A stretch of 64,000 nucleotides of DNA from Nocardioides sp. Root1257 (GCF_001425175.1 NZ_LMDV01000001.1:1075454-1139453), one strand, 5' to 3'. Counted from the stretch's first letter, positions 29,475-44,480 are shown. Numbers and translations are program-made. The notes: generated from the sequence alone by a model not told the origin.

Positions 29475-30221
29475 TCAGTGCTCGCGCAGGAGCGTGCCGT
29501 AGCCGTGCAGCTGGTCCTCGATGCCGTTCTCGCGCAGCGCCATCCACCAGGTGGCGGCGTTGATGGCGATCACCGGCTTGTCGAGCCAGCGCTCGGCCTC
29601 GTCGGCGAGCTCGGTCATGCAGAGGTTGGTGCCGCACTGGACGATCGCGTCCACGTCGGTGTCGTCGACCTCGTGGAGCGAGGCGCGCAGCGTCTGCTCG
29701 CTGACGTGCGCGATCGAGACCGCGCTCGGGCAGCTGAGGCCCTTGATCGCGCCGACCTCGAAGCCGAGCTCGGTGAAGAACGTGCGCACGTTCGCGTCGC
29801 CGATGGGCGTGTAAGGCGTGACCACGGCGATCCTCTTCGCCCCGAAGAGGTGCAGCGCCCGCTCGCACGCCTCGGCGCCGGTGGCCACCCCCAGTCCGCC
29901 GGAGAGACCCTTGATCTGCTCGACGAACTGCCGGTTGCCCTCGACGCCGTCCCAGAAGGTCTCGGCGCTCATGCCCATGACCAGGTAGTCGGGCTCCATC
30001 GTCATGATGCCTTCGACGCAGTCGGCCATCGACGCACGGATCTGCTCGAGCAGGGCCTCCATGCCCTCGTCGTCGCCGATCCGGCCGTTGCGGATCAGGA
30101 TCCGGCCGTAGTGCGACGTCACGCCGGGGACCCGCATCATGTCGAACTCGGGCTGCACGATGGTGTTGGTGCTCGGGGCGATCACGCCGAACTTGCGGCG
30201 CCAGCCGAGGCGGTCCGTCAT
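29475..30221 (-). CDS. Asp/Glu racemase superfamily, maleate isomerase or arylmalonate decarboxylase-like
   Basis: A 248-residue protein beginning with the family motif IAPSTNT. The second conserved Cys is present in IVQCGTN, but at the position of the first (Cys76 of maleate isomerase) the sequence is GMSAET, with no Cys. Having only the second Cys is the arylmalonate decarboxylase pattern, so it may decarboxylate a malonate-like acid rather than isomerise maleate. ATGA overlap with the membrane-protein gene places it last in the operon beginning at 36461. Its role would be on small diacids late in the pathway; this is inference. Confidence 0.75.
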   Translation of the reverse strand: MTDRLGWRRKFGVIAPSTNTIVQPEFDMMRVPGVTSHYGRILIRNGRIGDDEGMEALLEQIRASMADCVEGIMTMEPDYLVMGMSAETFWDGVEGNRQFVEQIKGLSGGLGVATGAEACERALHLFGAKRIAVVTPYTPIGDANVRTFFTELGFEVGAIKGLSCPSAVSIAHVSEQTLRASLHEVDDTDVDAIVQCGTNLCMTELADEAERWLDKPVIAINAATWWMALRENGIEDQLHGYGTLLREH

Positions 30222-30898
30222 GCACGGGCTCCTACGGATCGGTCGGGCTCGGTCGCGACGGCCGGCGTACGACGCAGCAGCCGCAGCGCGCCGAGCAGGA
30301 AGGACATCTGCACGATCGTGTTGGTGCCCTGCTCACCCCACTGCAGCGACTCGGACTGGTTCGGCCTGCCCGCGAGCGGCGGCAGGACGAGCGTGCCGAC
30401 GATGTAGACGACGAACAGCAGCGCGCCGAGCCGGTCGCCGTCGCGCAACGAGAGCCGGATCGCCAGCACGCCGACGAAGACCGCGCCGACGGCGGCGACG
30501 ATCAGCAGCGGCCAGGTGTCCCCCACCGCGATGGCGGCCGCGCCACCGACGACCGGCAGCACGAGGAACGGCCACCAGGGCACCTGCCGGCGCCGCCACA
30601 CCCCGACGAGCGCGCACGCGATCCCGGCGAAGCCGAAGGCCAGGCACGGGAAGAGCAGGTTCTCGAGGAACGGGTAGTTGCGGCACGGCTCGGAGGCGAC
30701 GAGCAGCTTCCAGGTGGCCTTCGCCAGGCCGCCGAGGAAGACCAGCGCACCGGCCAGCAGCGCGGGGACGCGGACGGCGGGCAGCACGCGCCCGGCGTAC
30801 TGCCCGAGCACCACGGTCCCGGCGCCCGCGAGCAGCACCGGGACGAAGTCCTCGAGCGCGAGCGCGAGGCCGTACTCGGTGCAGGGATCGACCGCCAT
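30218..30898 (-). CDS. Integral membrane protein of unknown family
   Basis: A 226-residue protein with about six or seven hydrophobic segments, e.g. FVPVLLAGAGTVVLGQYAG, ALLAGALVFLGGLA, AAIAVGDTWPLLIVAAVGAVFVGVLAI. A short acidic N-terminus contains Cys, and conserved-looking PCRNYPF and GEQGTN segments lie in loops. No transporter motif is recognised. TGATG and ATGA overlaps on both sides place it within the tetrapyrrole-like operon, so transport of a substrate or a redox role is possible but not shown. Confidence 0.65.
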   Translation of the reverse strand: MAVDPCTEYGLALALEDFVPVLLAGAGTVVLGQYAGRVLPAVRVPALLAGALVFLGGLAKATWKLLVASEPCRNYPFLENLLFPCLAFGFAGIACALVGVWRRRQVPWWPFLVLPVVGGAAAIAVGDTWPLLIVAAVGAVFVGVLAIRLSLRDGDRLGALLFVVYIVGTLVLPPLAGRPNQSESLQWGEQGTNTIVQMSFLLGALRLLRRTPAVATEPDRSVGARA

Positions 30899-31695
30899 CA
30901 GGCGCTCGCGAAGATGTCGCGCTTCTTGAAGCCCGCGGTCATGAAGCGACCCATCGCCTTGGGCGTGGTCAGCCACGCGACCCGAGTGCCGGACTTCTTC
31001 GCCGCGAGCAGGTGGTCGGCCAGCCACGGGGTGACGGTCTCGACGCGGTCGCCCAGGATGTTGAAGATCTTCTGGGCCTTCTCGAACGCCTCGGGCTGAC
31101 CGTCGTAGTCGTCCATGAGGAGGTCGGTGGCGACGATGCCGGGCGACAGGAAGCCGATCTTCACGTCGGTGCCCTTGGTCTCCTTGACCAGCGACTCGGT
31201 CAGGTAGGTGACCGCGCGCTTCGAGGCGCCGTACGTCGCCATCCCGCTCTGCACCTGGCCGGTGGAGCCGAAGCCCTCCATGTTCCAGATCCAGCCGCCC
31301 CCGGGCTGCCGGGCGAGCCCGGCCAGCGCGACGACGGAACCGTTGGTGGCGCCGAAGAGGTTGGTCGCGACGACCGACGCCACGGTGTCCTCGCCGACCT
31401 CGGTCAGCGGGCGCCGCGGCGCGGAGATGCCGGCGTTGTTGATCCAGACGTCGACGCGACCGTACGCCGAGATCGCGTGGTCCCACAGCGCCTGGACCGA
31501 CTCGCGCGAGGTGACGTCGGCGGGGACTCCCGTTGCCTGGGCGCCGAGCTCACCGAGCGCCTTGTCGACGCTCGCCTGGGAGCGACCGCAGACGACGACG
31601 CGGCAGCCGCGGGCGATCAGCTCCGTGGCGAGGCCCAGCCCGATGCCCCGGGTGCCGCCGGTGACGACGACGACCCGGCCGCCCGCAGCCGTCAC
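30898..31695 (-). CDS. Short-chain dehydrogenase resembling chlorophyll b reductase (NYC1/NOL)
   Basis: A 265-residue classical SDR: TGGTRGIG (12-19), NNAG (86-89), YGASK (155-159). Beyond generic motifs it shows features I recall from plant NYC1/NOL: NMEGFGS (138-144) where the plant enzymes have NMDGAGS, a YG(A/S)(S/T)K site, KETKGTDV then SPGIVATDLLM (184-194) like SPGMVLTDLLL, and an FNI...ETV segment (211-221). NYC1/NOL reduce the C7 formyl of chlorophyll b. GTG 31695 overlaps the upstream stop as GTGA. The SDR call is firm; the chlorophyll b reductase-like call rests on remembered similarity. Confidence 0.8.
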   Translation of the reverse strand: MTAAGGRVVVVTGGTRGIGLGLATELIARGCRVVVCGRSQASVDKALGELGAQATGVPADVTSRESVQALWDHAISAYGRVDVWINNAGISAPRRPLTEVGEDTVASVVATNLFGATNGSVVALAGLARQPGGGWIWNMEGFGSTGQVQSGMATYGASKRAVTYLTESLVKETKGTDVKIGFLSPGIVATDLLMDDYDGQPEAFEKAQKIFNILGDRVETVTPWLADHLLAAKKSGTRVAWLTTPKAMGRFMTAGFKKRDIFASA

Positions 31696-32672
31696 GCCGA
31701 CTCCCAGGTGAGCAGGCCGTGCACGAAGTGGGTGGTCGTGTCGCCACGGAAGAGCTGCCACACGACGGCCAGGTCGCGGGTGTCGGCGTCGATGAGGACC
31801 TCGCGGCCCTTGATCTTCTCGACGCCACGGGCGTCCGCGCCGACGAGGTGTTGGCTGGTGAAGAGCGCCCGGCCGTACGACGTGGCGTTGCCGAAGACCT
31901 CGGGCCCCTCGTACTGGGTCCGGGCACCGTCGCGGACCCGCTCGAAGGCATAGCTGCGCTCGAGGGCGCCGGTCCAGGTGACCTGCTGGTGCGCGCGTCG
32001 CAGCGAGAGCGGTGTGTGCTCGATGCGCACCTCCACCTCGCCGAGCGAGCTCTGGTCGGCGGCGTTGACGAAGAGGCTCCCGGTCCAGGCACCCCGCTCC
32101 TTGGTGGGCAGCACCTGCGGCACCGCGCCGCGGCGGGTCTCGAGCGCGATCCAGTCCTTGACCAGCTGCTGGGTCTCGGGGTTGGTCTCGTGGTCGAAGG
32201 TGCGCGTGTAGATGCCGTTGAAGACCGCGCACACGGCCCAGCCGTCGTGCAGCACCGACGAGTAGACCTGGGTGTTGCCGTCGGGCAGCACCTGGTTCCA
32301 GGTGCGCAGGTCGGCCTGCCAGCCCGGCGAGTAGTAGTGGGCGTCCACGAAGAGGCCGTAGGGCTGGCCGGTGCCGTAGAAGTCCGGGCCGCAGTAGACG
32401 CGGTTCTCGTCGGAGTCGACGATGCCGAAGTCGAACTGCGCGCCGAGCTCGAAGCGGTTGCGCAGCGGGCCGCTGGCGTCGAGCTTGGTGTTCATCCAGT
32501 AGCGGGCGACGCCGTCCTCGATGACGCTGGCGCGGTCCACCCGCTCGAAGCCGACGTGGTTGCCGACCGCGTCGAAGAGCCCCGGCGTGCCGTGCCACTC
32601 CCCCTCGATGCGCTTCTGCCACTCACTCGTCTCGGCGGCAGTGGTCTCGGTGGTCTCCTGCACGGCGGTCAT
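31692..32672 (-). CDS. Beta-barrel (lipocalin-like?) protein of unknown function
   Basis: A 326-residue cytoplasmic-looking protein rich in beta strands with two similar halves: each contains a fluorescent-protein/lipocalin-like series of short strands (e.g. EWHGTPGLFDAVG at the front, HDGWAVCAVFNGIYTRTF mid-chain, LIDADTRDLAVVWQLF near the end). It could relate to the DUF3598/CpcS-like bilin-lyase lipocalin group, but I am not sure. Overlaps of 4 bp join it to the SDR and to the RCCR/bilin-reductase-like gene. A pigment-binding carrier or lyase is plausible; not shown. Confidence 0.6.
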   Translation of the reverse strand: MTAVQETTETTAAETSEWQKRIEGEWHGTPGLFDAVGNHVGFERVDRASVIEDGVARYWMNTKLDASGPLRNRFELGAQFDFGIVDSDENRVYCGPDFYGTGQPYGLFVDAHYYSPGWQADLRTWNQVLPDGNTQVYSSVLHDGWAVCAVFNGIYTRTFDHETNPETQQLVKDWIALETRRGAVPQVLPTKERGAWTGSLFVNAADQSSLGEVEVRIEHTPLSLRRAHQQVTWTGALERSYAFERVRDGARTQYEGPEVFGNATSYGRALFTSQHLVGADARGVEKIKGREVLIDADTRDLAVVWQLFRGDTTTHFVHGLLTWESA

Positions 32673-33427
32673 GCGGACACCGCACCGATGCTGTTGTCGA
32701 GCAGCAGGCCGCGCACGGCCTCGGTCTGCTCGTGACCGATCAGCCGCTCGACCTGCGCCCAGACCTTGTCGACGTCGGGGCTGAAGACGTTGGCACGGTT
32801 GCGGGCGTCGCGCGCGGCGAGGTCGGTGTCGGCGACGTCGGCGACGACCTCGGCCGGGACGCCGGCCTCGACCAGGCTGAACCAGTGGTCGAGGTAGGCC
32901 TTCACGGCGTCGCTGATGCCACGGAACGCCTCGTCCTCGGCGCGGTGCACGAGCATCCAGGGCGACATCATCGCGAACTGCCGCGGGCCGATCGCGGTCT
33001 TCATCAGGCCGGGCCGCGACTCGACCTCCTCGTACGTCGCGTCGAGCGGTGTGTGCGCCCAGTCGAGGTAGGGCAGGTGGGTGCCGAGGTCGACGCGCGG
33101 GATCAGGTCGAGGTGGAAGGCGTAGGTGCCCTGCCCCTGGACCGAGTCGAGCGTGAAGTGCGGGATCGCCACGTCGGCCGGGCAGAACGCGAACACCATG
33201 TGGCTGTCCAGGCCGATCTGCGGGACCGCGAGCCCGACGTACACGACCTTCGCGATCGCGTCGCCGGTGAAGACGCGGGCCTCACCGACCGGCGCCTGAC
33301 CGCCCGGGAACGCCGACGACACCAGCTCGAGGAAGGGGCCGCCGTCGGCACCGGTGACCTCGGTCAGGCCGCCACGCTCGACGATCTCGTCCAGCGTGCC
33401 GTGGCACAGGGAAGCGGGCAGGCTCAT
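32669..33427 (-). CDS. RCCR / ferredoxin-dependent bilin reductase-like protein
   Basis: A 252-residue protein. Key segments are IPHFTLD (88-94), HLDLIPRVDL (105-114), then HLPYLDW and SPWML (155-159), matching the strand-PPR-DL-Y...SP order of RCCR and bilin reductases and of the two larger paralogues here. Unlike them it has Asp94 at the position where the plant RCCR has its catalytic Glu, so it is the best candidate for an active reductase. It is encoded directly after the Rieske oxygenase (ATGA overlap), mirroring the order of the plant reactions (oxygenase, then RCCR). Confidence 0.62.
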   Translation of the reverse strand: MSLPASLCHGTLDEIVERGGLTEVTGADGGPFLELVSSAFPGGQAPVGEARVFTGDAIAKVVYVGLAVPQIGLDSHMVFAFCPADVAIPHFTLDSVQGQGTYAFHLDLIPRVDLGTHLPYLDWAHTPLDATYEEVESRPGLMKTAIGPRQFAMMSPWMLVHRAEDEAFRGISDAVKAYLDHWFSLVEAGVPAEVVADVADTDLAARDARNRANVFSPDVDKVWAQVERLIGHEQTEAVRGLLLDNSIGAVSA

Positions 33428-34653
33428 GCCTTGATCTCCTCGATCGTCGAGTCGGGGTGGGAGAGGGAGTCGGTGCGCGGCACGTCACCGCGCTTGGCCC
33501 GGTCGGCGTTGCCGGAAAGGATCTCCCGGCTGCGGACCTCCTTGAAGTTCCACGCGCTCGCGAGCTCGGGCACCTCCTTGCGGACCGGCGACGGGATGAC
33601 CCGCTGCTCGACCCGGGCCGGGCCCTCGCCGACGATGGTGTTGCCCTCGACGCTCCAGCCGGCCTCGATCAGCTCCTGCCGGCGCCGGCGGTAGAGCACG
33701 GCGTTGTAGTCGCTCTTGACGTGCAGCTCGTCGGACAGGTCGAAGGGCAGCAGCTCCGGGCGCACGGTGTCGACGACGACCTGGTCCTCGTACAGCACCT
33801 TGAACACGCGGCGACGCGCGTCGCCGTCGGCCCACTTGCCCTTGAAGAACGTGCGCAGCGCCACGAACTTGACGAGAGTCGTCTCCTCGTCGATCGGGAT
33901 GTTGACGTCGAAGATCTTGAGCTGGCCCATCGGCGTCTTCACGTCGAGGAGCAGCAGGTTGGGCAGCCACCACGTCGTCGAGACCGGGACCGGCGGGCGC
34001 GACATCAGGTCCTTGGTCTTGTTGGGGTTGAGCATTCCCCAGATGCCCTTGGAGTTCGGCGGGTTCAGGACCACCGACACCTTGCAGTGCCAGGGCGAGC
34101 TCTCGATCTCGAACTCGGGCACCTCCGGCTTCTCCTTGTTGCCGAAGACGCCGCCGTGCACGAACGGCGTGTGCGAGACGTCGACGCCGTTCTCGAGGAT
34201 CCGCTCGTAGTTCGACTTCCAGAGGAACTCGCCGGTGACGGCGCGGTACTCCTCGGTGTTGTCGATGTCGGACCAGTCCGGGATCGGCGGTCGCTCCTCC
34301 TCGGGCAGGTCACCGAGGTAGACCCACACGAACATGTACTTCTCCTGCACCGGGTAGGAGTCGATGCGGGCCTTGCGCGGGATGCCCTTGTCGGGGTGCG
34401 CGGGGATCTTCTGCACCTCGCCGTTCGGCTTGTACTCCCAGCCGTGGTACGGACAGACGATGCAGTCGCCCTTGACCTCGCCGCCGGAGAGCGCAGCACC
34501 GCGGTGCACGCAGAGGTCCGACATGGCGACGACCGAGTTGTCGCTGGTCTTGCGGTAGAGCACCAGCTGCTGGCCGAGGATCTTGACCTTCTTCGGCTTG
34601 CCGGCCACGACGTCGGAGCTGAACTCGACGGCGTACCAGAAGTTCTTGAACAT
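33424..34653 (-). CDS. Rieske non-heme iron oxygenase, pheophorbide a oxygenase-like layout
   Basis: A 409-residue oxygenase. The Rieske [2Fe-2S] ligands are Cys48, His50, Cys67 and His70. The catalytic iron site shows ENGVDVSH..FVH with bridging Asp158 and ligands His161 and His166. The DxSHxPFxH form is that of pheophorbide a oxygenase, TIC55 and vanillate demethylase-type enzymes, which use a separate reductase. No transmembrane segment is seen. ATG 34653 follows AGGAGA. No dedicated ferredoxin or reductase gene lies beside it. Neighbours are an RCCR-like gene and a chlorophyllase-like hydrolase, so cleavage of a tetrapyrrole macrocycle or hydroxylation of a pigment is the favoured idea. 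Confidence 0.85.
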   Translation of the reverse strand: MFKNFWYAVEFSSDVVAGKPKKVKILGQQLVLYRKTSDNSVVAMSDLCVHRGAALSGGEVKGDCIVCPYHGWEYKPNGEVQKIPAHPDKGIPRKARIDSYPVQEKYMFVWVYLGDLPEEERPPIPDWSDIDNTEEYRAVTGEFLWKSNYERILENGVDVSHTPFVHGGVFGNKEKPEVPEFEIESSPWHCKVSVVLNPPNSKGIWGMLNPNKTKDLMSRPPVPVSTTWWLPNLLLLDVKTPMGQLKIFDVNIPIDEETTLVKFVALRTFFKGKWADGDARRRVFKVLYEDQVVVDTVRPELLPFDLSDELHVKSDYNAVLYRRRRQELIEAGWSVEGNTIVGEGPARVEQRVIPSPVRKEVPELASAWNFKEVRSREILSGNADRAKRGDVPRTDSLSHPDSTIEEIKA

Positions 34654-34662
34654 CGGGGTCTC

Positions 34663-35646
34663 CTACCTTCGGCGGATGCCGGCGAACTCGGGACGGGGGT
34701 GGTCGGCGAGCTCCTCGAGCTCGGCCTTGGCGTCCGCCGACCCGTGCAGGTGGGCGGACAGGAACGTGGCGACGAGGTCGCCGAGCACCTCGCGGAGCCG
34801 GTCGTGGTCGGCGTCGGTGGGGGTCTCGAGGAAGCCGCGGGCGGTCGAGGGGTCCTCGGGGTACGACGCGAGCATGTGCCCCGCGCCCTCGAGGTGGACC
34901 AGCCAGGACTCGGTCGTCTCCGGCAGCGCCTCGCGCCAGGTGCGCTCGATCGGGTCGTGGCCGGCAGCGCCCGGCTGCTCGCCGTACCGGATCGCACTGG
35001 CGGCGACGACGCCGTCGTGGGTGCCGGCGACGATCAGCGTCGGCGCCTCGACGGGTGCCGGGAGCAGCGTGTTGGGCGGGTAGCCGATCATCTGCGAGGC
35101 CATCGTGTGGCCGCCGTACGAGACGACCGCGCGCACCTGCGGGAACCACGCCGGTCGGGCGGACTGCAGGATCACGGTGCCACCGGCCGAGTGGCCGAAC
35201 AGGCCGACCTTGTCGAGGTCGAGGAGCCCGGCGAGCTGGCCGGCCTCGTTGAGGCCGGCGACCGCCTCGAGCACCGGGCCGAGCGCGGGGGTGGTCGGGC
35301 GCTCGCCGTAGTGCTCGGGTCCGGCGGCGACGATGTCGACGCCCGGCGTCAGTCCGTGCTCGCCGGGGAACAGCTGGCCGACCCAGTCGTAGCCCACGAC
35401 GACGAAGCCCGCCTCGACCAGCCGGAAGGCCAGCCAGCGGTAGGCGTCCGCCGGGCAGTTGACGCCGGAGACCAGCACCACGACCGGGTACGGCGCACCC
35501 GCGGGGTCGACGGCCAGGCGGCCGCTCATCCGCTCGACGTCGTCGCGTGCCGCGAGCGCGGGGTAGCGCACGGTGACGTGGGCGGTGTCGTACGGCGCCT
35601 CCGCGCCGGGGATGCGGACCGCCGTACGCAGGCTGCGGACCAGCAT
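34663..35646 (-). CDS. Alpha/beta hydrolase, chlorophyllase-like
   Basis: A 327-residue alpha/beta hydrolase. The strand-oxyanion region is PYPVVVLVSGVN, then FVVVGYDW, then the nucleophile elbow GLFGHSAGG (Ser153). Plant chlorophyllase has PVLFLHGF, FIVVAPQ and GHSRGG in the same order, so it is chlorophyllase/dienelactone-hydrolase-like. A THDG Asp region and a C-terminal GAGHML His complete the triad. It lies between the RCCR-like and Rieske genes. Ester cleavage, such as removal of phytol or a methyl ester, is inferred. Confidence 0.78.
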   Translation of the reverse strand: MLVRSLRTAVRIPGAEAPYDTAHVTVRYPALAARDDVERMSGRLAVDPAGAPYPVVVLVSGVNCPADAYRWLAFRLVEAGFVVVGYDWVGQLFPGEHGLTPGVDIVAAGPEHYGERPTTPALGPVLEAVAGLNEAGQLAGLLDLDKVGLFGHSAGGTVILQSARPAWFPQVRAVVSYGGHTMASQMIGYPPNTLLPAPVEAPTLIVAGTHDGVVAASAIRYGEQPGAAGHDPIERTWREALPETTESWLVHLEGAGHMLASYPEDPSTARGFLETPTDADHDRLREVLGDLVATFLSAHLHGSADAKAELEELADHPRPEFAGIRRR

Positions 35647-36461
35647 CAGGCCTGCTCGTGGGGACGAGGCAGCTGACGGTCGCCGCCCCACAGGGCGCGG
35701 ACCAGCGTGTTGGTGAGCTCCTTGCCGAAGAAGCGGTCGCCCATCTCGTTGGCAGGGTCGCGGTCGGCGATGTTGCGCCGGGTCGCGAGGTCGTCGGCGG
35801 CCAGCGCGTCCTGCTCCTCGACCGGCACCCGCTCGGCCTCGTCGACCCACGAGAGCCAGCGGTCGAGGTGGTCGGTGGCGAGCTTGGCGACGACGTCGGT
35901 GGTGCGGCTGTCGGTCGGCGCGGTGTAGGCGTGCGCCATCGGCGAGAGGCTGGCGCGCACGAAGCCGCTGCGGCTGACGAACGGGGCGAGGAAGTCGTTC
36001 TCCTGCTGCACCTGCTCCCACTCCGCGTTGAGCGGGCCGTAGTAGCGGTCGAAGGAGTCGGTGTCCGTCAGCAGGTTGGTGCGCGGCACCGAGTCGACGA
36101 AGATCCAGGCCTGCGGGAACGCCCCGAGGGCCAGGCCGAAGTGCGGCACCTTCACCTGCGGACCGAGCCAGATGGTCAGGTGGATGTTGGCGAACCCGAG
36201 CGTCGCGTTCTGCATGTGCGAGTGGACCAGCCAGTCGACCTCGGGGCCGGCGTAGCCGCGGATCCGCCCGGTCGGGCCGCCGTTCTCGCCGCCGAAGCTC
36301 TCGAGCACGTCCGTCGAGGGGTCGCGGGTGAGCTCGAACCGGTCGGCGACCTTGGCCATGAGGCCGTCGACCAGCTCCATCCAGACGCCGAAGATCTCGG
36401 TGATGTCGGTCGGCGGCGCCTCGTCGTAGAACTCGCGCACCGACTTCAGGGTCTGGCTCAT
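35646..36461 (-). CDS. RCCR-like protein (red chlorophyll catabolite reductase family)
   Basis: A 271-residue protein and first gene of the eight-gene operon. It contains VDWLVHS (75-81), KVPHFGLA (104-111), DSVPRTNL (123-130), FDRYY (137-141), VRASLSP (168-174) and DPANEM..RFF (235-245), the ordered pattern I recall from plant RCCR (NAPNFLIE, DLPPRKDL, FYED, IRSVVSP). The Glu position of the plant enzyme is Ala111 here. ATG 36461 is chosen for the AGGAG upstream; a longer frame to 36548 crosses the operator. It is clearly paralogous to 11120-11947. Confidence 0.68.
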   Translation of the reverse strand: MSQTLKSVREFYDEAPPTDITEIFGVWMELVDGLMAKVADRFELTRDPSTDVLESFGGENGGPTGRIRGYAGPEVDWLVHSHMQNATLGFANIHLTIWLGPQVKVPHFGLALGAFPQAWIFVDSVPRTNLLTDTDSFDRYYGPLNAEWEQVQQENDFLAPFVSRSGFVRASLSPMAHAYTAPTDSRTTDVVAKLATDHLDRWLSWVDEAERVPVEEQDALAADDLATRRNIADRDPANEMGDRFFGKELTNTLVRALWGGDRQLPRPHEQA

Positions 36462-36516
36462 CGTGCTCCTCACACTGCTCCGTGGCGCCGTCGCGGCCTC
36501 GGTGGACGAGACGACT

Positions 36517-36528
36517 ATATATGATCTA
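36517..36528 (+). promoter_or_regulatory. Candidate operator, site E, upstream of the RCCR/Rieske operon
   Basis: Reads ATATATGATCTA, identical to site G and to site B inverted. It lies about 56 bases upstream of the operon's first start at 36461, a likely promoter region. Confidence 0.6.
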
Positions 36529-36752: not shown

Positions 36753-38204
36753 TCAGGAGCCGGGGTAGGCCGCGGCACCCAGCCCCGCTCCCCCGGCCCG
36801 GAAGGCGCCGGGGGCGTGCACGACGCAGGGCTGGGTGTGCTCGAGGACGCCCTCGTCGCCGTACTCGCGGCCCCAGCCGGACCGCTTCACCCCACCGAAC
36901 GGAGCCCGCAGCGACATGCCGGTGCGGTTGTGGGTGTTCACGAACGTGAAGCCCGCGTCGAGGCGAGTGGCGACGGCGAAGGCGCGCTCCTCGTCGGCCG
37001 ACCACACCGATGCGGCCAGCCCGAGGTCCCCGGCGTTGGCCCGCGCGACCGCCTCGTCGAGCGAGTCGTAGGCGAGCAGCGGGACCGCCGGGCCGAACTG
37101 CTCCTCGGCGACCAGCGCGTCGCGGTCGGTCGCGCCGAGGACCAGGGTCGGCAGCAGGTAGTGCCCACGGCTCAGGTCCGCGTCGGGGTCGACGGTGCCG
37201 AGCACGAACGACTCGGCACCGCGGTCGACCGCCGCCTCGACCATCCCGCGCACCCGCACGGCGGACGCCGAGGTGACGACCGGACCGACGGTCGCGCCCG
37301 CGTTCAGCGGGTCGCCGAGCCGCAGCACGCGCTCGGCGGCGGCCCGGTAGGCGTCGACGACCTCGTCGTGCCGACGACGCGGGACGAGGAGTCGCTTGAC
37401 CGCCATGCAGACCTGGCCGGAGGTCGCGAAGGTCGCCATCACCAGGCGGTCCATCGCCTCCGGGCCGAGGTCGGCGTCGTCGAGCAGCAGCGCCGCGTCG
37501 TTGCCACCGAGCTCCATCAGGCTCGGGGTCAGGCTCTGCCCGGCGAGGGCGGCGATGGCCCGGCCGGCCCGCTCGCCACCGGTGAAGGCGACCCGGTCGA
37601 CGCCCGGGTGCCCGACCAGCGCGGTGGCCGTCCCGGCGTCGCCCTGCACGGTCTGCACGACCCCGTCGGGCGCGTCGACGCCGAGCAGCTCGACCACCCG
37701 GGCGATCGCGAACGGCGCCAGCGGTGAGGGCTTGACGATCACGGCGTTGCCGGAGACCAGCGCGGGGCCGAGCTTGAGGACGGCGAGGATGACGGGCGCG
37801 TTCCACGGGGTGACGGCCGCGACCACGCCGTACGGACGACGACGCACGAGCAGCCGCCCGGCCGCGTCGTCGACGACCTGGTCGACGAGCAGCTCCTCGG
37901 CCCGGTCGGCCGACCAGCGCAGCACGGTCACGGCGAAGCCGAGCTCGCCGCGGCAGTCGGGCAGCACCTTGCCGGTCTCGCGCGCCATCAGGACGGCCAG
38001 GTCGTCGAGCTCGGCGGCGATCCGGTCGGCACCCGCGCGCACCGCGGCACAGCGGGCACCCAGGTCGAGCGCCGCCCAGCCGCGCTGCGCGCAGCGTGCC
38101 CGGGCGACCGCGGCGTCGACCGCCGCCGGGTCGGCGGCGACGACGGCGCCGACCAGCTCGTCGGTGCGAGCCGGGTTCTCCCGCTCGATCACTGTGCAGT
38201 TCAC
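36753..38204 (-). CDS. Aldehyde dehydrogenase family protein
   Basis: A 483-residue NAD(P)-dependent aldehyde dehydrogenase. The TPWNAP segment, the ELGGND segment and the catalytic Cys in SGQVC are present. GTG 38204 overlaps the FAD-monooxygenase stop as GTGA. It is the last gene of the six-gene operon and would oxidise an aldehyde made by the monooxygenases or lyase. Substrate unknown. Confidence 0.88.
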   Translation of the reverse strand: MNCTVIERENPARTDELVGAVVAADPAAVDAAVARARCAQRGWAALDLGARCAAVRAGADRIAAELDDLAVLMARETGKVLPDCRGELGFAVTVLRWSADRAEELLVDQVVDDAAGRLLVRRRPYGVVAAVTPWNAPVILAVLKLGPALVSGNAVIVKPSPLAPFAIARVVELLGVDAPDGVVQTVQGDAGTATALVGHPGVDRVAFTGGERAGRAIAALAGQSLTPSLMELGGNDAALLLDDADLGPEAMDRLVMATFATSGQVCMAVKRLLVPRRRHDEVVDAYRAAAERVLRLGDPLNAGATVGPVVTSASAVRVRGMVEAAVDRGAESFVLGTVDPDADLSRGHYLLPTLVLGATDRDALVAEEQFGPAVPLLAYDSLDEAVARANAGDLGLAASVWSADEERAFAVATRLDAGFTFVNTHNRTGMSLRAPFGGVKRSGWGREYGDEGVLEHTQPCVVHAPGAFRAGGAGLGAAAYPGS

Positions 38205-39436
38205 CGGGGCGCCCGCACGCCGACCATGTCGACGACCAAGCCGTCGCGCAGCGAGTTGATCATCGACGTGTTGAGCAGGTGCTTGCGCATCCGCTCGCGG
38301 TCGGCGGCCAACGCGCGCAGCTCGTCGTGGTAGGCCCGGATCGCCTCGGGGTCGTCCTGGCGGAGCTTCTCCCAGTTGTCGTGGGTGATCGTCTTGACGT
38401 AGGACAGCGCGACCTGGCGCCGCGCCTCGCACGCCTCGTCGAGCTTCTCGAGGTTGCCCTCACCGCGGACCAGCGCGAGCAGCGCCGTCGTCTCGACGTA
38501 CGCGTCGTGCAGGCCGCTGTTCATGCCCATCCCGCCGAGCGGGTTGTTGATGTGGGCGGCGTCGCCCATCAGCAGCAGGCGACCGCGGCGGAAGGTGTCG
38601 GCGACGCGCTGGTGGACGCGGTAGAGCGTCGTGTGCAGGACGTCCCAGTCGCGGCCCAGGTCGGCGACGCCGCGCAGCCGCTCCTGCACGCGGGCCGGGT
38701 CGCTCTCGACCTCGTCGGGCGTGCTGGGGTCCGTCGGGAAGAGGATCCGCCAGTGCTCCGGGGTGCGCAGCAGCACCAGCCACTCGGTCGGGTCGAAGAC
38801 GTAGTTGACCGCGGAGATGCCCGGCAGGATCGCCTCCAGGTCCTCGGTGGTCGAGGCGACCAGGAAGCGCTCGGGGTAGGTCATCCCCTCGAACGTGAAG
38901 CCGGCGGTCTGTCGCACCTGGGAGTTGGCACCGTCGGCGCCGAGCACCCAGTCTGCGGTGAAGGTGTCGCCGACTCCCCCTGCTCTCGGGGAGGTGGTCA
39001 CGGTCGCAGTGGTGCCGTCGGTCTCGGCCCGCACCACTCGCTGGTCGAAGTGGACCGTGACGTTGTCCATGCCCTCGAGCACCTCGAGGATGATCGGGGT
39101 CAGCTTCGACTGCTCGAGCTGGACCCGGAACGGGAAGCGGGTGTCGTCGGCGAGCACACCGAGGTCGAGGTCGGCGATCGGGCCCGTACGACGGTCGCGG
39201 TACTGGAAGCCGGTCGAGACGAGCCCCCGCTCCATGAGCGGCTCGAGCACGCCGAGGTCGTCGAGCATCTCCAGGCTCGGCGGGTGGAACGTCGACGCGC
39301 GGGACTCGCCGGCCAGGGACTCCCCCGCCTCCAGGACGGTCACGCGTACGCCGCCGCGCGCCATCAGCAGCGCAGCGGTCATGCCGACGGGTCCGGCGCC
39401 TGCGACCACGACGTGCGTCTTCTCCAGGGCAGTCAT
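38201..39436 (-). CDS. FAD-dependent monooxygenase (PheA/UbiH-type)
   Basis: A 411-residue flavoprotein of the group A aromatic hydroxylase type. It has an N-terminal GAGPVG dinucleotide motif, a central DGANS and a C-terminal GDAAHINNPLGGMGMN, which bind FAD. Start ATG 39436 overlaps the lyase-like stop as ATGA. In this operon it could hydroxylate or open a pyrrole-type ring; enzyme class is clear, substrate is not. Confidence 0.88.
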   Translation of the reverse strand: MTALEKTHVVVAGAGPVGMTAALLMARGGVRVTVLEAGESLAGESRASTFHPPSLEMLDDLGVLEPLMERGLVSTGFQYRDRRTGPIADLDLGVLADDTRFPFRVQLEQSKLTPIILEVLEGMDNVTVHFDQRVVRAETDGTTATVTTSPRAGGVGDTFTADWVLGADGANSQVRQTAGFTFEGMTYPERFLVASTTEDLEAILPGISAVNYVFDPTEWLVLLRTPEHWRILFPTDPSTPDEVESDPARVQERLRGVADLGRDWDVLHTTLYRVHQRVADTFRRGRLLLMGDAAHINNPLGGMGMNSGLHDAYVETTALLALVRGEGNLEKLDEACEARRQVALSYVKTITHDNWEKLRQDDPEAIRAYHDELRALAADRERMRKHLLNTSMINSLRDGLVVDMVGVRAPR

Positions 39437-40329
39437 GCGGGTTCTCCTGCGGCGTACCGCTGCTCGAGGGTCAGCAGGTCGGGCAGCCCGACCAGCGTGG
39501 TGAGGTCGTCCCAACCGAGCCGGTCGACCGGGGCGGCGCCGCCACCGGCCGCGATCGCGGCGTACACGGCGGCCTGCGCGCGGGCCGCGGCGAGCAGGGC
39601 GGAGACCGGGTGGATGACCACCCGGACGCCGAGCTCGCGCAGCGCCGCCAGGTCCAGCGGGGGCTCGTCGCCCGCGGCCTCGGACCGGTTGACGACGAGG
39701 GGCGGGCAGCTGCCCACGGCTCGGGTGACCCCCTCGACCACCTGAGCCAGGTCGGGCAGGCCCGCTCCCTCGACGAACACGGCGTCGGCGCCCGCCTCGG
39801 CGTACGCGACGCACCGCTCGGTGGCCGACGCGACGCCCTCGACGCCGAGGGCGTCGGTGCGGGCGACCACGACGAGACCCTGCTCGATCTCGTGGCTGGC
39901 ATCCACGGCCGCGCGCACCCGCGCCGCCGCCTCGGCCACGTCCACGACGGCCTTGCCGGCGAGGTGGCCGCAGCGCTTCGGCGCGACCTGGTCCTCCAGG
40001 TGGAGGCCGGCGATGCCGGCCGCGGCGTAGGCCCGCGCGGTGGCCCGCGCCTGGAGCGCGTTGCCGTAGCCGGTGTCGGCGTCGGCCAGCAGCGGCAGGC
40101 CGTCCAGCGCCGGGACCACCGACTGCGCGACGCGGACGATGTCGGTGGCGTGCACGAAGCCGAGGTCCGGCAGGCCGAGCGCGACGGCGGAGGCGACCGC
40201 ACCCGACAGGTGTGTACCGGCCACGCCGGCGCGGGCGGCGAGCCGCGCGCTCACCGCGTCGTACACACCGGGCAGGTGCACCAGGTCGGGACCGGTGAGG
40301 AGCGCGCGCAACCGGTCGGGAGCGGTCAT
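39433..40329 (-). CDS. Isocitrate lyase/PEP mutase family, dimethylmalate lyase-like
   Basis: A 298-residue TIM-barrel enzyme of the PEP mutase/isocitrate lyase superfamily. LADADTGYGN (81-90) carries metal-binding Asp83/85, and HLEDQVAPKRCGH (110-122) keeps the family's KRCGH loop with catalytic Cys120. Members include methylisocitrate and 2,3-dimethylmalate lyases; oxaloacetate hydrolase is another possibility. 2,3-Dimethylmalate lyase works on alkylated maleate-derived acids, as expected from pyrrole ring degradation. ATGA overlaps both neighbours. Confidence 0.78.
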   Translation of the reverse strand: MTAPDRLRALLTGPDLVHLPGVYDAVSARLAARAGVAGTHLSGAVASAVALGLPDLGFVHATDIVRVAQSVVPALDGLPLLADADTGYGNALQARATARAYAAAGIAGLHLEDQVAPKRCGHLAGKAVVDVAEAAARVRAAVDASHEIEQGLVVVARTDALGVEGVASATERCVAYAEAGADAVFVEGAGLPDLAQVVEGVTRAVGSCPPLVVNRSEAAGDEPPLDLAALRELGVRVVIHPVSALLAAARAQAAVYAAIAAGGGAAPVDRLGWDDLTTLVGLPDLLTLEQRYAAGEPA

Positions 40330-41804
40330 CGGCCGTGCAGGGCCGTCATGCCCTCGACGCCGACCACCCGCGCACCGGTGAAGATCCGGATCGTCTCGAC
40401 GGTGCCCTCCTCGCCGAGCCCGGAGAGACCCCAGGCCGGGCGCGGGGACATCAGGTGCAGGCTCATGATCGTCGAGCCGTTGACCTTCACCTCGCCGGCA
40501 CGCACCCGGCGCGCGAACGCCAGGGCGTGCTCGGTGTCGGTGCCGACGACGTAGCCCTCGAGGCCGTACGGCGTGCCGTTGGCCAGCGCCAGCGCCTCGG
40601 CCTCGGTCTCGTAGGTGTGGACGGTCGCGACCGGCCCGAAGATCTCCTCGACGGCCGCCTCGGCGGGCACGCCGGTGAGCAGGGTCGGGGCCAGGAAGCT
40701 GCCGGACCCGTCGGGCAGCGGGGTGCTCGCGTGGGCGGCACCGCCGGCGGCCTCGCGGGTCGCGATCTCCGCGCGCAGCCGGGCCTGGTGCACCGAGTGC
40801 ACCATCGGGCCGAGATCGGTCGCGGGGTCGAGCGGGTCGCCCACGGTCAGGCCCGCGAGCCGTTCGAGCGCGAGACCGACGACCTCGTCGGCCATCGACG
40901 CGGGCACCACCAGACGGCCGAGCGCACGGCACCACTGGCCGTTGAGCGTGGTCAGCAGGTCGACCGCGGCCTGCGCCGCGGCGGCCGGGTCGGCGTCGGG
41001 CAGCACGACGAGCGGGTTGTTGCCGCCGAGCTCGAGCTGGAGCGCCGTGAAGTCCTCGGCGCACGCGGCCGCGACGGCGCGGCCGCCGACCGCCCCGCCG
41101 GTGAACGAGACAGCGCGGACCCGGGGGTCGCGGACCAGCTGGCCGCCGACCGCCGGGCCGCCCTGGACGACCTGGAAGAGACCCGGGTCGACGTCCGCCT
41201 CGGCGAGCACCCGACTGACGACGCGCCCCAGCTCGGTGGTGCCGTACGGCGCGTACTCGCTCGGCTTGAGGATGGTCGGCGCACCCGCGGCGAGGGCGCT
41301 GGCGACCTTGTGGGCGGCCATCGGGGCGGGCGCGTTCCACGGGACCAGGCAGACGGCGGGTCCCAGCGGGAGGCGGTGCACCTCGACCTGGTTGCCGGCG
41401 TCGGACGTGTAGTCGTCGCGCAGCACGCCGTTGCGCAGCATCTGCGCGGCCAGGTGGAAGGCACCCGGCACGATCACGCCGACGATCGAGGTCTGCGTGA
41501 TCGGCACTCCCGTGGCGAACGACTCCAGCGCCGCGATCCGGGCGACCTCCTCGCCGAGCGCGGCGCCGACAGCATCGAGCACCTCGGCCCGGCGCTCGAC
41601 CGGAAGCTCGAGCCACCCACCGGCGTCGTACGCCGCCGTCGCGGCCGCGATCGCCCGGTCGACGTCGGCGGCGCTGCTGGCTGCCGCCTTGCCGAGCTCG
41701 CGACCGGTGGACGGGTCCTCCAGCACGAGGTCGAGGACCTCGCCGGGCACGGTCCACTCGCCGTCGACCAGCTGCCCCGCCTCGGGAAGCTCGATGTTCG
41801 TCAC
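40326..41804 (-). CDS. Aldehyde dehydrogenase family protein
   Basis: A 492-residue aldehyde dehydrogenase with VPWNAP, ELGGNNP and a catalytic Cys in GQWC. GTG 41804 is chosen because AGGAG lies five bases upstream; the frame continues to 41864 but that part overlaps the previous gene end. Second aldehyde dehydrogenase of the operon, about 40 percent similar in style to the one at 36753; probably a different substrate. Confidence 0.88.
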   Translation of the reverse strand: MTNIELPEAGQLVDGEWTVPGEVLDLVLEDPSTGRELGKAAASSAADVDRAIAAATAAYDAGGWLELPVERRAEVLDAVGAALGEEVARIAALESFATGVPITQTSIVGVIVPGAFHLAAQMLRNGVLRDDYTSDAGNQVEVHRLPLGPAVCLVPWNAPAPMAAHKVASALAAGAPTILKPSEYAPYGTTELGRVVSRVLAEADVDPGLFQVVQGGPAVGGQLVRDPRVRAVSFTGGAVGGRAVAAACAEDFTALQLELGGNNPLVVLPDADPAAAAQAAVDLLTTLNGQWCRALGRLVVPASMADEVVGLALERLAGLTVGDPLDPATDLGPMVHSVHQARLRAEIATREAAGGAAHASTPLPDGSGSFLAPTLLTGVPAEAAVEEIFGPVATVHTYETEAEALALANGTPYGLEGYVVGTDTEHALAFARRVRAGEVKVNGSTIMSLHLMSPRPAWGLSGLGEEGTVETIRIFTGARVVGVEGMTALHGR

Positions 41805-44445: not shown

Positions 44446-44468
44446 CGCACACCTCCTTTCGGTAGAGA

Positions 44469-44480
44469 ATATACAATATC
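44469..44480 (+). promoter_or_regulatory. Candidate operator, site F, between oxygenase operon and GntR gene
   Basis: Reads ATATACAATATC, close to sites A and C. It lies between the minus operon start (44445) and the plus-strand GntR gene (44586). TACAAT at 44472-44477 is a plausible plus-strand -10, and minus-strand TATTCT is one for the operon. A regulator binding here would control itself and the operon. Confidence 0.6.

What the first reader, a model, noticed from the sequence alone, without database searches (positions are those of the whole stretch)
29475..36461. Bacterial operon with homologues of the plant chlorophyll-breakdown enzymes
One eight-gene operon encodes an SDR resembling chlorophyll b reductase (30898), a Rieske oxygenase with the pheophorbide a oxygenase-type active site (33424), two RCCR-like proteins (32669, 35646) and a chlorophyllase-like hydrolase (34663). 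In plants these act in sequence: dephytylation, chlorophyll b reduction, macrocycle cleavage by PAO, and reduction of red chlorophyll catabolite by RCCR. Finding all in one operon, with uptake and lower-pathway genes sharing its operator motif, suggests a bacterial route for chlorophyll, phyllobilin or other tetrapyrrole degradation. Motifs are seen in sequence; family matches are from memory; the substrate is inference.
Basis: partly seen in the sequence, partly recalled or inferred. Interest (0 to 1): 0.93.

Follow-up and report, generated by a model that had tools for sequence, protein, structure and literature searches.

The report
Bacterial tetrapyrrole-breakdown gene cluster (predicted)
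A soil bacterium carries a co-regulated gene cluster, also found in other bacteria, with three relatives of the plant enzyme that reduces broken-open chlorophyll together with oxygenases and ring-opening enzymes; it is most likely an undescribed route for eating chlorophyll-like or bile-pigment-like molecules.

Summary
The operon is real. RCC reductase (RCCR) homology is solid: Pfam over threshold at 35646 and at 11120, a gene the finding does not name. The weak match at 32669 folds as an RCCR/bilin reductase. So three such proteins share one cluster. The other plant labels fail or stay generic: no PaO domain, chlorophyllase below threshold, ordinary SDR. RCCR, Rieske, 32669 and tandem-calycin genes are co-linear in 61 of 70 loci outside Nocardioidaceae. 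PF06405, 32669 and 31692 occur in the same 16 of 196 genus genomes. The operator ATATATGATCTA has three exact genomic copies, all in this cluster; a one-mismatch palindrome precedes a CoA-transferase/cyclase/PrpD/hydantoinase-like operon, whose orthologues adjoin the RCCR operon in loci mostly labelled Acidimicrobiia; there hydantoinase and an unrelated oxoprolinase were never found together within the stretches held. Best reading: catabolism of a linear tetrapyrrole to maleimide-type fragments, ring opening, entry into central metabolism. Substrate and every enzymatic step are inferred. No report appeared in the listings of ten paper searches.

The parts
35646..36461 (-). RCCR2: RCC_reductase-family protein, first gene of the operon
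   Evidence: PF06405 46.5 bits over cut-off 24.9; best PDB match Arabidopsis RCCR E 1.2e-5 alone, 3.7e-18 as profile of 27 RCCR1/2 proteins
34663..35646 (-). alpha/beta hydrolase (GHSAGG in sequence); not chlorophyllase by Pfam threshold
   Evidence: PF12146 29.1 bits over cut-off 27; PF07224 15.7 below 26; match in 57 of 70 loci outside Nocardioidaceae, displaced and about 38-45% identical in the Acidimicrobiia loci
33424..34653 (-). Rieske oxygenase, VanA_C type
   Evidence: PF00355 88 and PF19112 79.3 bits; best PDB SxtDIOX 6.5e-41; CxH-CxxH and DxxHxxxxH in 74 of 74 orthologues examined
32669..33427 (-). divergent RCCR/bilin-reductase-fold protein, keeps acids at both catalytic positions (D94, D220)
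   Evidence: AF2 pLDDT 94.2; Foldseek AtRCCR 1.6e-10, VIA Z about 20-23 to RCCR and most bilin reductases; hhalign to RCCR1/2 97.4%; residues
31692..32672 (-). tandem calycin-barrel protein (DUF3598/BFA1-like fold), putative tetrapyrrole carrier or partner (role inferred)
   Evidence: no Pfam hit; AF2 pLDDT 79.2; VIA Z 19.2 to 2o62 and 5yvf, nitrobindin 12-13, CpeS 10.9
30898..31695 (-). generic short-chain dehydrogenase
   Evidence: PF00106 140.9 bits; none of the 25 NCBIfam families shown reaches its cut-off
30218..30898 (-). small membrane protein, unknown
   Evidence: no family over cut-off; in 18 of 20 regions
29475..30221 (-). maleate isomerase / arylmalonate decarboxylase superfamily protein lacking the first of the two isomerase cysteines
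   Evidence: PF17645 65.9 bits; best PDB maleate isomerase 2.7e-11
36516..36528 (+). operator TATATATGATCTA upstream of the RCCR2 operon
11120..11947 (+). RCCR1: another RCCR-family protein, not named in the finding
   Evidence: PF06405 51.1 bits
11092..11104 (-). operator copy in the RCCR1/ABM divergent promoter
   Evidence: conserved in relatives
11944..12786 (+). NAD-dependent epimerase-like oxidoreductase
   Evidence: PF01370 43.8 bits; in 18 of 20 regions
10743..11063 (-). ABM-domain small monooxygenase-like protein
   Evidence: PF03992 30.9 bits; in 19 of 20 regions
10084..10746 (-). second alpha/beta hydrolase
   Evidence: PF12697 72.5 bits; in 19 of 20 regions
9566..10087 (-). RipB-like enoyl-CoA hydratase (variable block)
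   Evidence: NF038241 203 bits, below cut-off 340; in 10 of 20 regions
6041..7372 (-). MmgE/PrpD family protein (variable block)
   Evidence: PF03972 206 bits
839..1696 (-). RipC/CitE-like C-C lyase (variable block)
   Evidence: PF03328 118.5 bits; NF038242 166 bits, below cut-off 375
14646..19586 (-). branched-chain-amino-acid-type ABC importer (permease/ATPase fusion, ATPase, and the adjoining gene 18243-19586, taken as the binding protein by position only: no Pfam hit)
   Evidence: PF02653, PF00005; in 18 of 20 regions
12806..14649 (-). two LPxTG-type surface proteins (LPKTG seen in sequence), one of the neocarzinostatin family
   Evidence: PF00960 51.3 bits; 17 and 18 of 20 regions
21835..22491 (+). 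sortase
   Evidence: PF04203 114.6 bits; 18 of 20 regions
36753..38204 (-). aldehyde dehydrogenase
   Evidence: PF00171 416.5 bits; 18 of 20 regions
38201..39436 (-). FAD_binding_3 monooxygenase
   Evidence: PF01494 199.5 bits; 15 of 20 regions
39433..40329 (-). PrpB / methylisocitrate-lyase-like lyase
   Evidence: PF13714 137.7 bits; TIGR02317 220 bits, below cut-off 354; 15 of 20 regions
40326..41804 (-). second aldehyde dehydrogenase
   Evidence: PF00171 357 bits; 18 of 20 regions
41861..43159 (-). acyl-CoA-dehydrogenase-fold flavoprotein, possibly a two-component monooxygenase (inferred)
   Evidence: PF02770 53.4 bits; 18 of 20 regions
43156..44445 (-). flavin reductase with weak HMGL-like C-terminal part
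   Evidence: PF01613 153.5 bits; PF00682 E 5e-4 below cut-off
44463..44475 (-). degenerate operator (3 mismatches) at the regulator promoter
44586..45302 (+). GntR/FCD regulator, candidate binder of the operator (inferred)
   Evidence: PF00392, PF07729; 18 of 20 regions
45299..46939 (-). nitrilase-superfamily amide hydrolase
   Evidence: PF00795 153.3 bits; 58 of 70 loci outside Nocardioidaceae
46963..46975 (+). operator copy between the nitrilase gene and the MFS gene
47029..48375 (+). MFS transporter
   Evidence: PF07690 188 bits; 17 of 20 regions
51502..52110 (-). isochorismatase-type hydrolase (peripheral)
   Evidence: PF00857 127.4 bits; 15 of 20 regions, one of them at 31% identity
52110..53279 (-). 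class III CoA-transferase (peripheral)
   Evidence: PF02515 402 bits; nearest NCBIfam succinate-glutarate CoA-transferase 268 bits, below cut-off 750

Best explanation
The cluster is a catabolic regulon for a linear (or to-be-linearised) tetrapyrrole. Surface proteins and the ABC/MFS transporters import it; the Rieske oxygenase and flavin monooxygenases attack the conjugated system; the three RCCR/bilin-reductase-type proteins make successive ferredoxin-dependent reductions of the open-chain intermediates, with the tandem calycin protein (31692) as a pigment-holding partner; bridge cleavage gives mono- or dipyrrolic pieces that end as alkyl-substituted cyclic imides or lactams (hematinic-acid and methyl-ethyl-maleimide type); these are opened by the hydantoinase-like (or, in other lineages, oxoprolinase-like) enzyme and by nitrilase/isochorismatase amidases to dialkyl-maleate-type diacids, which CoA-transferases, hydratases (PrpD/RipB/LeuCD types) and C-C lyases (PrpB/CitE types) feed into central metabolism. 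Shown: family, fold, synteny, co-inheritance, shared operator. Inferred: substrate, reactions and their order. Plant-chlorophyll-derived phyllobilins or pheophorbide are somewhat favoured over haem bilins because an ester-type hydrolase is usually part of the operon and no haem oxygenase is linked.
For: RCCR family for two proteins and the same fold for a third. The Asp aligned with PEBB Asp-219 is invariant in 81 of 81 RCCR2 and 76 of 76 32669 sequences; the first acid position is Asp in 75 of 76 32669 sequences, the other having a gap (the PEBB Asp pair read in passages of PMC6755814). Partner 31692 folds like DUF3598/BFA1 with weaker matches to haem-binding nitrobindin and bilin lyase CpeS. 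Core order kept in 61 of 70 loci outside Nocardioidaceae. PF06405, 32669 and 31692 in exactly the same 16 of 196 genus genomes. Operator restricted to this cluster at zero mismatches and found, with up to two mismatches, in 18 of 18 Nocardioidaceae regions. A one-mismatch palindromic operator precedes a CoA-transferase-cyclase-PrpD-hydantoinase operon outside the window whose orthologues sit beside the RCCR operon in loci mostly labelled Acidimicrobiia, and near the cluster in 4 of 20 regions; hydantoinase (13 of 80 loci) and oxoprolinase HyuB (8 of 80) were not found together in any stretch held. Hematinic acid and maleimides are oxidative breakdown products of chlorophyll and haem (passages of PMC7318184).
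Against: No enzyme activity or substrate is shown. By alignment RCCR1/RCCR2 have Ala, Thr or another uncharged residue where AtRCCR has an acid. A sequence profile of the 32669 family does not find RCCR in the PDB and its Pfam score is below cut-off. No ferredoxin or ferredoxin reductase was recognised among the cluster genes scanned. The branched-chain-type ABC importer would be unusual for a molecule as large as a bilin. No PAO, chlorophyllase or linked haem oxygenase. In the Acidimicrobiia loci the hydrolase is displaced and poorly conserved, and the two distant regions G252 and G294 lack it. SDR, ALDH, CoA-transferase and ABM are generic and occur in many catabolic clusters. The window's lower-pathway enzymes scanned with NCBIfam all fall below the cut-offs of the named functions shown.
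Confidence: 0.6

Rival explanations
1. The RCCR-type proteins have been recruited to reduce a non-tetrapyrrole substrate (another conjugated N-heterocycle, such as a prodiginine, a pyridine or indole alkaloid, or a large lactam), so the cluster is a catabolic pathway for that compound.
For: RCCR1/RCCR2 lack one catalytic acid by alignment; ABC importer of amino-acid type; lower-pathway enzymes are generic amide and dicarboxylate enzymes; Rieske nearest in PDB to SxtDIOX/SxtT and methylxanthine demethylases.
Against: The high-scoring solved relatives of the 32669 fold are tetrapyrrole enzymes (RCCR, bilin reductases, coproporphyrinogen oxidases), apart from two chloroplast Ycf2-FtsHi complex subunits; three such proteins in one cluster plus a calycin with weaker matches to haem- and bilin-binding barrels.
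Confidence: 0.22
2. Sub-case of the best explanation: the substrate is haem-derived (biliverdin or bilirubin from animal or microbial haem) and not chlorophyll-derived.
For: Maleimide and hematinic-acid chemistry is common to both; the genome has a haem oxygenase; RCCR proteins are akin to bilin reductases.
Against: The haem oxygenase is on another contig; haem bilins have no ester, yet a hydrolase matches in 57 of 70 loci; the RCCR1/2 profile matches RCCR far better than bilin reductases (3.7e-18 against 4e-7). None of this is decisive.
Confidence: 0.2
3. The cluster makes or modifies a bilin-like pigment or secondary metabolite and does not degrade one.
For: Bilin reductases are usually biosynthetic (general knowledge); a neocarzinostatin-type protein is in the cluster.
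Against: Many CoA-transferase, lyase, amidase, aldehyde dehydrogenase and importer genes in the cluster or under the same operator fit catabolism.
Confidence: 0.07
4. An ordinary steroid or aromatic catabolic operon in which the RCCR similarity is incidental.
For: Rieske, flavin reductase and SDR genes; NCBIfam similarity below cut-off to the steroid enzyme HsaB and to a sterol Rieske enzyme.
Against: No ring-cleavage dioxygenase family among the matches; strict co-inheritance of RCCR-type and calycin genes.
Confidence: 0.04

Closest known systems
Plant PaO/phyllobilin pathway of chlorophyll breakdown (PAO then RCCR)
   Same: A Rieske oxygenase gene directly beside RCCR-family genes; hydrolase and SDR in the same operon.
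   Different: Rieske is VanA_C type without PF08417 and without a C-terminal CxxC; hydrolase and SDR are not shown to be of the plant families; three reductase-type proteins; a lower pathway for fragments that plants are not known (recalled) to have.
Ferredoxin-dependent bilin reductases (PcyA, PebA/B, HY2) and heterotroph pre-PcyA clusters (PMC10151467, passages seen)
   Same: Same fold and, in 32669, acids at the positions of the Asp pair.
   Different: Clusters there have bilin-binding globins, V4R and Fe-S proteins; here Rieske, calycin and catabolic genes. In the passages seen, RCCRs and related sequences serve only as an outgroup.
Cyanobacterial RCCR homologues in Nostoc and Anabaena (PMC2716323, passages seen)
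   Same: Bacterial members of the RCCR family.
   Different: The passages describe single genes or two side-by-side genes in cyanobacteria that form plant symbioses, not a catabolic operon.
Nicotinate/maleamate and dimethylmaleate routes (NicD/NicF/NicE; DmdAB; recalled)
   Same: Amide hydrolase, isochorismatase, maleate-isomerase-superfamily and PrpB-type lyase genes of similar classes.
   Different: No pyridine-ring dioxygenase family among the matches; 29475 lacks one isomerase cysteine; only a working analogy for the lower part.

Membership tests
RCC reductase (Pfam PF06405) | Score over curated cut-off of 24.9 bits (RCCR1, RCCR2) | tested here: met
   35646: 46.5 bits; 11120: 51.1 bits
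RCC reductase (Pfam PF06405) | Score over curated cut-off of 24.9 bits (32669) | tested here: not met
   17.3 bits
RCCR / bilin reductase superfamily fold | alpha/beta/alpha sandwich superposing on RCCR and PcyA | tested here: met
   32669 model: Foldseek AtRCCR 1.6e-10, 45 hits under 1e-3 of this kind; VIA Z about 20-23, rmsd about 3 over 224-233 residues for RCCR, HY2, PebA/B and PcyA. RCCR1/2 were not modelled; placed by sequence.
RCC reductase | Both catalytic acids (AtRCCR Glu154 and Asp291; role recalled, positions derived from the F218V chain) | tested here: not met
   RCCR2: Asp at the Asp291 position in 81 of 81; Ala in 80 and Thr in 1 at the Glu154 position. 32669 has Asp at both (75 of 76 with one gap, 76 of 76) (equivalence of positions from the hhalign alignment).
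RCC reductase | Ferredoxin-dependent reduction of red chlorophyll catabolite | not testable with these tools
   needs enzyme assay
Ferredoxin-dependent bilin reductase (Pfam PF05996) | Score over curated cut-off of 31 bits | tested here: not met
   24.5 bits for 35646, 11.6 for 32669
Pheophorbide a oxygenase (PF08417) | PaO domain | tested here: not met
   no match at E<=1 for 33424; none at E<=10 in the whole genome, while at that loose limit 9 of 14 control genomes gave some match, 1 over cut-off
Pheophorbide a oxygenase / TIC55 group | Rieske and mononuclear-iron motifs | tested here: met
   74 of 74 orthologues; shared with Rieske oxygenases in general
Pheophorbide a oxygenase / TIC55 group | C-terminal CxxC (recalled) | tested here: not met
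   0 of 74 orthologues
Chlorophyllase (PF07224) | Score over cut-off of 26 bits | tested here: not met
   15.7 bits
Chlorophyll b reductase NYC1/NOL | Specific sequence relation within SDRs | not tested
   only generic SDR families matched; no NYC1/NOL model or sequence was compared
DUF3598 / BFA1 calycins | Tandem calycin fold | tested here: met
   VIA Z 19.2 to 2o62 and 5yvf, model pLDDT 79.2
DUF3598 / BFA1 calycins | Pfam family match | tested here: not met
   0 families at E<=1
Maleate isomerase | Two catalytic cysteines (recalled) | tested here: not met
   alignment with 2xed keeps a Cys at the second position but not at the first
Hydantoinase/allantoinase-type cyclic amidohydrolases (gene at L173:12880-14346, outside the window) | Sequence similarity across the family | tested here: met
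   PDB D-hydantoinase 2.7e-37; best NCBIfam allantoinase 210 bits but below equivalog cut-off 358. Substrate not implied.

The most novel reading that the evidence does not exclude
This is a complete aerobic bacterial route that takes chlorophyll-derived linear tetrapyrroles (phyllobilins or pheophorbide) all the way to central metabolites, shared by Actinomycetota with scattered Chloroflexota and Myxococcota, and so a genetic basis for the final disappearance of chlorophyll in soil and sea; RCCR-type enzymes would then have a bacterial catabolic branch alongside the plant one.
Probability: 0.35. Interest if true: 0.95.

Novelty: new variant of a known kind. Interest (0 to 1): 0.85.

Why it matters
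Chlorophyll is made and destroyed on a 10^12 kg scale each year (PMC7318184, passage), yet to my knowledge (recalled) no bacterial gene set for consuming its open-chain products is known. A conserved, co-regulated cluster with three reductases of the RCCR/bilin-reductase kind, and ring-opening enzymes that seem to swap between lineages, makes the question directly testable in cultured, type-collection soil actinomycetes.

Tried and rejected
Rejected: the literal plant pathway (PAO and chlorophyllase labels fail, the SDR stays generic). Rejected as chance: the operator motif (0.12 expected, 4 found in the window; reversed-pattern control 0 in the genome; the scan of relatives had no shuffled control). 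A tree to place Arabidopsis RCCR among the bacterial sequences gave a very long plant branch in an unresolved group with RCCR1, with a long-branch warning; I draw nothing from it except that 32669, RCCR1 and the other RCCR-family sequences separate, and that L138, labelled Rhodospirillaceae, groups with Acidimicrobiia sequences and may be misassigned. PDB profile search with the 32669 family gave only hits I judge meaningless, so its placement rests on structure and hhalign. PDB profile search with the 31692 family gave nothing significant (best E 0.1). No RCCR2-like protein in the plasmid collection at E<=1e-3. The idea that the NmrA-type oxidoreductase behind the one-mismatch operator at C1:1038025 is an 8-vinyl reductase found no support; it has no homologue at E<=1e-20 in the regions and loci compared. 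A guessed GntR-type palindrome was absent. The clustering of all ORFs in distant loci was swamped by shadow ORFs and was mostly replaced by gene tables. The rows listed by paper searches showed no report of such an operon; several of these searches matched more papers than they list (for example 11,616, 25 listed), and subscription journals are largely not held. For PMC10151467, PMC6755814, PMC7318184, PMC2716323 and PMC10060970 I saw found passages only; all other papers only as search listings.

Full report
WHERE IT IS. The window lies in a 5.49-Mb genome. They are: RCCR2, alpha/beta hydrolase, Rieske oxygenase, 32669, 31692, SDR, a membrane protein, and a maleate-isomerase/arylmalonate-decarboxylase-type protein.

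THE RCCR CLAIM HOLDS. 35646-36461 scores 46.5 bits with PF06405 (cut-off 24.9) and only 24.5 with the bilin reductase family (cut-off 31). A further gene on the plus strand, 11120-11947, scores 51.1 bits. Those two are the only PF06405 matches in the genome at E<=0.001. A profile of 27 such proteins finds, at E<=1 in the PDB, only Arabidopsis RCCR (3.7e-18), the bilin reductase PebB (4e-7), phytochromobilin synthase (0.067) and PebA (0.56). 32669-33427 scores below the cut-off (17.3 bits) and its own profile finds nothing of this kind in the PDB, but its AlphaFold model (19 sequences, mean pLDDT 94.2) matches Arabidopsis RCCR first (E 1.6e-10) and then PcyA, HY2, PebB, PebA and PebS; the 45 matches under 1e-3 are all of this kind except two subunits of the chloroplast Ycf2-FtsHi complex, which align along most of the model. 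The second aligner gives Z about 20 to 23 for RCCR, HY2, PebA/B and PcyA, 18 to 19 for PebS, 15 for PcyX and 10 to 17 for coproporphyrinogen oxidases. Profile comparison of the 32669 and RCCR1/2 families gives 97.4% probability. So three proteins of the tetrapyrrole-reductase kind are in one cluster.

ACTIVE SITES. Residue numbers are for RCCR2 read from the GTG at 36473 and for 32669 as annotated. In the alignment, counting from the F218V mutant chain fixes the numbering of the Arabidopsis chain; Asp291 then aligns with D239 of RCCR2 and Glu154 with A115 (the catalytic role of these two residues is recalled; the pairwise alignment puts a gap one residue earlier). The bilin reductase GtPEBB needs Asp-99 and Asp-219 (passages of PMC6755814), and its KDPAR motif aligns with DPAN of RCCR2. 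RCCR2 has H111 in 81 of 81 sequences, Ala (80) or Thr (1) at 115 and D239 in 81 of 81; 32669 has H90 in 76 of 76, D94 in 75 with one gap, and D220 in 76 of 76 (the equivalence of D94/D220 rests on the hhalign alignment). So the least similar protein by sequence is the one that keeps both acids. I infer that the RCCR1/2 reaction differs from the plant one.

THE OTHER PLANT LABELS DO NOT HOLD. The Rieske protein has intact metal-binding motifs (74 of 74 orthologues) but belongs with VanA_C oxygenases (79.3 bits), has no PaO domain at E<=1 (none at E<=10 genome-wide), no C-terminal CxxC in any of 74, and its nearest solved relatives are SxtDIOX/SxtT and methylxanthine demethylases. The hydrolase falls below the chlorophyllase cut-off (15.7 against 26) and the SDR is generic; NYC1/NOL sequences were not compared.

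THE UNKNOWN PROTEIN 31692. No Pfam match at E<=1. The model (pLDDT 79.2) is two calycin barrels, best matched by DUF3598 of Nostoc and by BFA1 (both Z 19.2), then nitrobindin (12 to 13), phycobiliprotein lyase CpeS (10.9) and UnaG (7.8). These partial matches to haem- and bilin-binding barrels are suggestive only: outer-membrane and designed barrels score as high as nitrobindin, and fatty-acid-binding proteins as high as UnaG.

CONSERVATION. PF06405 is rare: 3 of 396 genomes sampled from the phylum (own genome included), 16 of 196 from the genus, 23 of 294 from the family. In each hit genome there are exactly two PF06405 genes, in opposite orientation, about 18 to 27 kb apart. I fetched 18 of the 23 other Nocardioidaceae hit genomes (not G415, G509, G625, G642, G648). 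In all 18, the eight-gene operon, both RCCRs, the ABC importer, sortase, both aldehyde dehydrogenases, the flavoprotein/flavin-reductase pair, GntR and nitrilase are present in the same arrangement; the FAD monooxygenase and the PrpB-like gene are missing in three. Profiles of 32669 and 31692 hit exactly the same 16 of 196 genus genomes as PF06405. A collection-wide search found 125 relatives, of which 80 were returned: Nocardioides, Mumia, many Nocardia, Actinoplanes, Streptosporangiaceae, Acidimicrobiia, Anaerolineae, and single MAGs labelled Deltaproteobacteria (L162), Rhodospirillaceae (L138), Oligoflexaceae (L170) and Leptolyngbyaceae (L171). Several Nocardioidaceae loci among them are the same genomes as the fetched regions, so the two sets are not added together. 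Of the 70 outside Nocardioidaceae, 64 have the Rieske gene, 65 the 32669 gene, 63 the 31692 gene, 58 the nitrilase, 57 the hydrolase, 52 the SDR, 35 the isomerase-like gene; 62 have Rieske, 32669 and 31692 together, and 61 have RCCR-Rieske-32669-31692 in that order on one strand within 5.5 kb. Nearly all of these are labelled Actinomycetota or unplaced MAGs; outside it are L169 (Anaerolineae) and L138; L162 has all four genes but 32669 lies elsewhere in the stretch. Eight lack at least one of the three: L117, L141, L160, L165 and L171 lack all three; L154 and L159 lack 31692; L170 lacks the Rieske gene. Some loci end near the match. Because the search was seeded with RCCR, these numbers show association, not prevalence.

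REGULATION. TATATATGATCTA with up to three mismatches occurs four times in the window against 0.12 expected: upstream of RCCR1, RCCR2, GntR and nitrilase/MFS. In the whole genome ATATATGATCTA occurs exactly three times, all in this cluster; with one mismatch there are three more matches at two places, and none for the reversed control. The motif with up to two mismatches is found in 18 of 18 Nocardioidaceae regions, mostly within about 65 bases of RCCR1 (or its divergent neighbour), RCCR2 or nitrilase starts, with some copies at other cluster genes, and in 0 of the 2 distant ones (no shuffled control). The regulator is probably the GntR/FCD protein at 44586, present in 18 of 20 regions (inference).

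THE SECOND OPERON. One of the outside places is a palindrome, TAGATCATATACGATCTA, between a flavoprotein gene and an operon of class III CoA-transferase, cyclase-family hydrolase, MmgE/PrpD and a hydantoinase/allantoinase-type cyclic amidohydrolase, about 9 kb before the window. Relatives of this operon, at 54 to 65% identity, lie beside the RCCR operon in loci mostly labelled Acidimicrobiia. Among the 20 regions the hydantoinase lies near the cluster in four: two Mumia regions (G609, G653) and G695, with the whole operon at 72 to 81% identity, and G483, where hydantoinase and PrpD are seen at the region's edge; the third Mumia-genus region (G635) does not show it. Of 20 distant loci with the cyclase gene, 11 carry the hydantoinase, 7 carry an oxoprolinase/caprolactamase-type HyuB (with HyuA in some), none both, 2 neither; overall 13 and 8 of 80 loci with no overlap (family). 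Two cautions: related loci are not independent, and only about 20 kb or less is held per locus, so the other gene could lie beyond the edge. In an Anaerolineae locus (L169) a LeuC/LeuD-type hydratase pair (LeuD/DmdB family over cut-off) follows the RCCR operon, with a hydantoinase relative further on; another Anaerolineae locus (L160) also has the hydantoinase. Two lines, shared operator in Nocardioides and adjacency in other lineages, thus tie a cyclic imide or lactam ring-opening step to the RCCR genes.

MECHANISM PROPOSED. Oxidative tetrapyrrole breakdown ends in maleimides and hematinic acid (PMC7318184 passages; in that study's leaves hematinic acid was found but maleimides were not). Opened hematinic acid is a one-carbon homologue of 2-methyl-aconitate (chemistry from general knowledge), which fits the presence of PrpD-like and PrpB-like proteins (39433: 220 bits with methylisocitrate lyase, below cut-off 354) and would give pyruvate and glutarate; CoA-transferases nearest to succinate-glutarate or mesaconate types (below cut-off) and RipB/RipC-like proteins (below cut-off) could process the other dialkyl-maleates. 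All of this step order is inference. Import would use the ABC importer, surface proteins and MFS carrier. Electron donors must be ferredoxins encoded elsewhere, since none was recognised among the cluster genes scanned.

SUBSTRATE. Chlorophyll-derived and haem-derived open-chain tetrapyrroles both fit. The ester-type hydrolase of the operon, the lack of a linked haem oxygenase (the one found is on another contig) and the closer match to RCCR than to bilin reductases lean towards chlorophyll products. I put about 0.6 on tetrapyrrole catabolism as described and 0.35 on the full chlorophyll version.

KNOWN OR NEW. RCCR homologues in Nostoc and Anabaena are reported (PMC2716323 passages), and RCCR-related sequences of Candidatus Schekmanbacteria fell within the outgroup of a bilin-reductase tree (PMC10151467 passages). 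No paper among the rows listed by the ten searches run describes a bacterial RCCR-Rieske operon. I file it as a new variant: it works like the oxygenase-plus-RCCR module of the plant pathway but is not that pathway by the membership tests.

Noticed in passing
window 23078-29214: A stretch with a GH106 rhamnosidase-like gene, a LysR regulator and a sigma factor with a SnoaL-like domain interrupts the otherwise conserved cluster; these genes have no match in the 20 compared regions, so it looks like a strain-specific insertion.
   Followed up: partly
window 12806-14649 and 21835-22491: LPKTG-ended surface proteins, one of the neocarzinostatin family, with their own sortase, conserved in the cluster (17-18 of 20 regions); relatives of the 14014 protein also occur in 26 of 70 distant RCCR loci at about 38% identity.
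   Followed up: no
window 43156-44445; L169 6607-7989: Flavin reductase joined to an HMG-CoA-lyase-like domain in one protein; the fusion is clear in L169 and weak in the window.
   Followed up: no
L117, L141, L160, L165, L171: RCCR homologues without the Rieske/32669/31692 partners within the stretch held, so RCCR-family proteins may have other roles in some bacteria, including a cyanobacterial MAG.
   Followed up: no
PDB 8xqw_H and 8xks_P: A subunit of the algal chloroplast Ycf2-FtsHi motor complex aligns with the RCCR/bilin-reductase fold (VIA Z about 19).
   Followed up: no
L172 6924-8021 (genome C1:1036924-1038021): An NmrA/NAD_binding_10 oxidoreductase lies behind the other one-mismatch operator copy; function unknown, no homologue at E<=1e-20 in the compared loci.
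   Followed up: partly
window 839-10087: A beta-oxidation/itaconate-like block (CitE/RipC-like lyase, acyl-CoA dehydrogenase, thiolase-like, MaoC, Rid, PrpD, CoA-transferase, luciferase-like) beside RCCR1 is optional: its genes match in 10 to 18 of 20 regions, the higher counts including paralogues at about 30% identity.
   Followed up: partly
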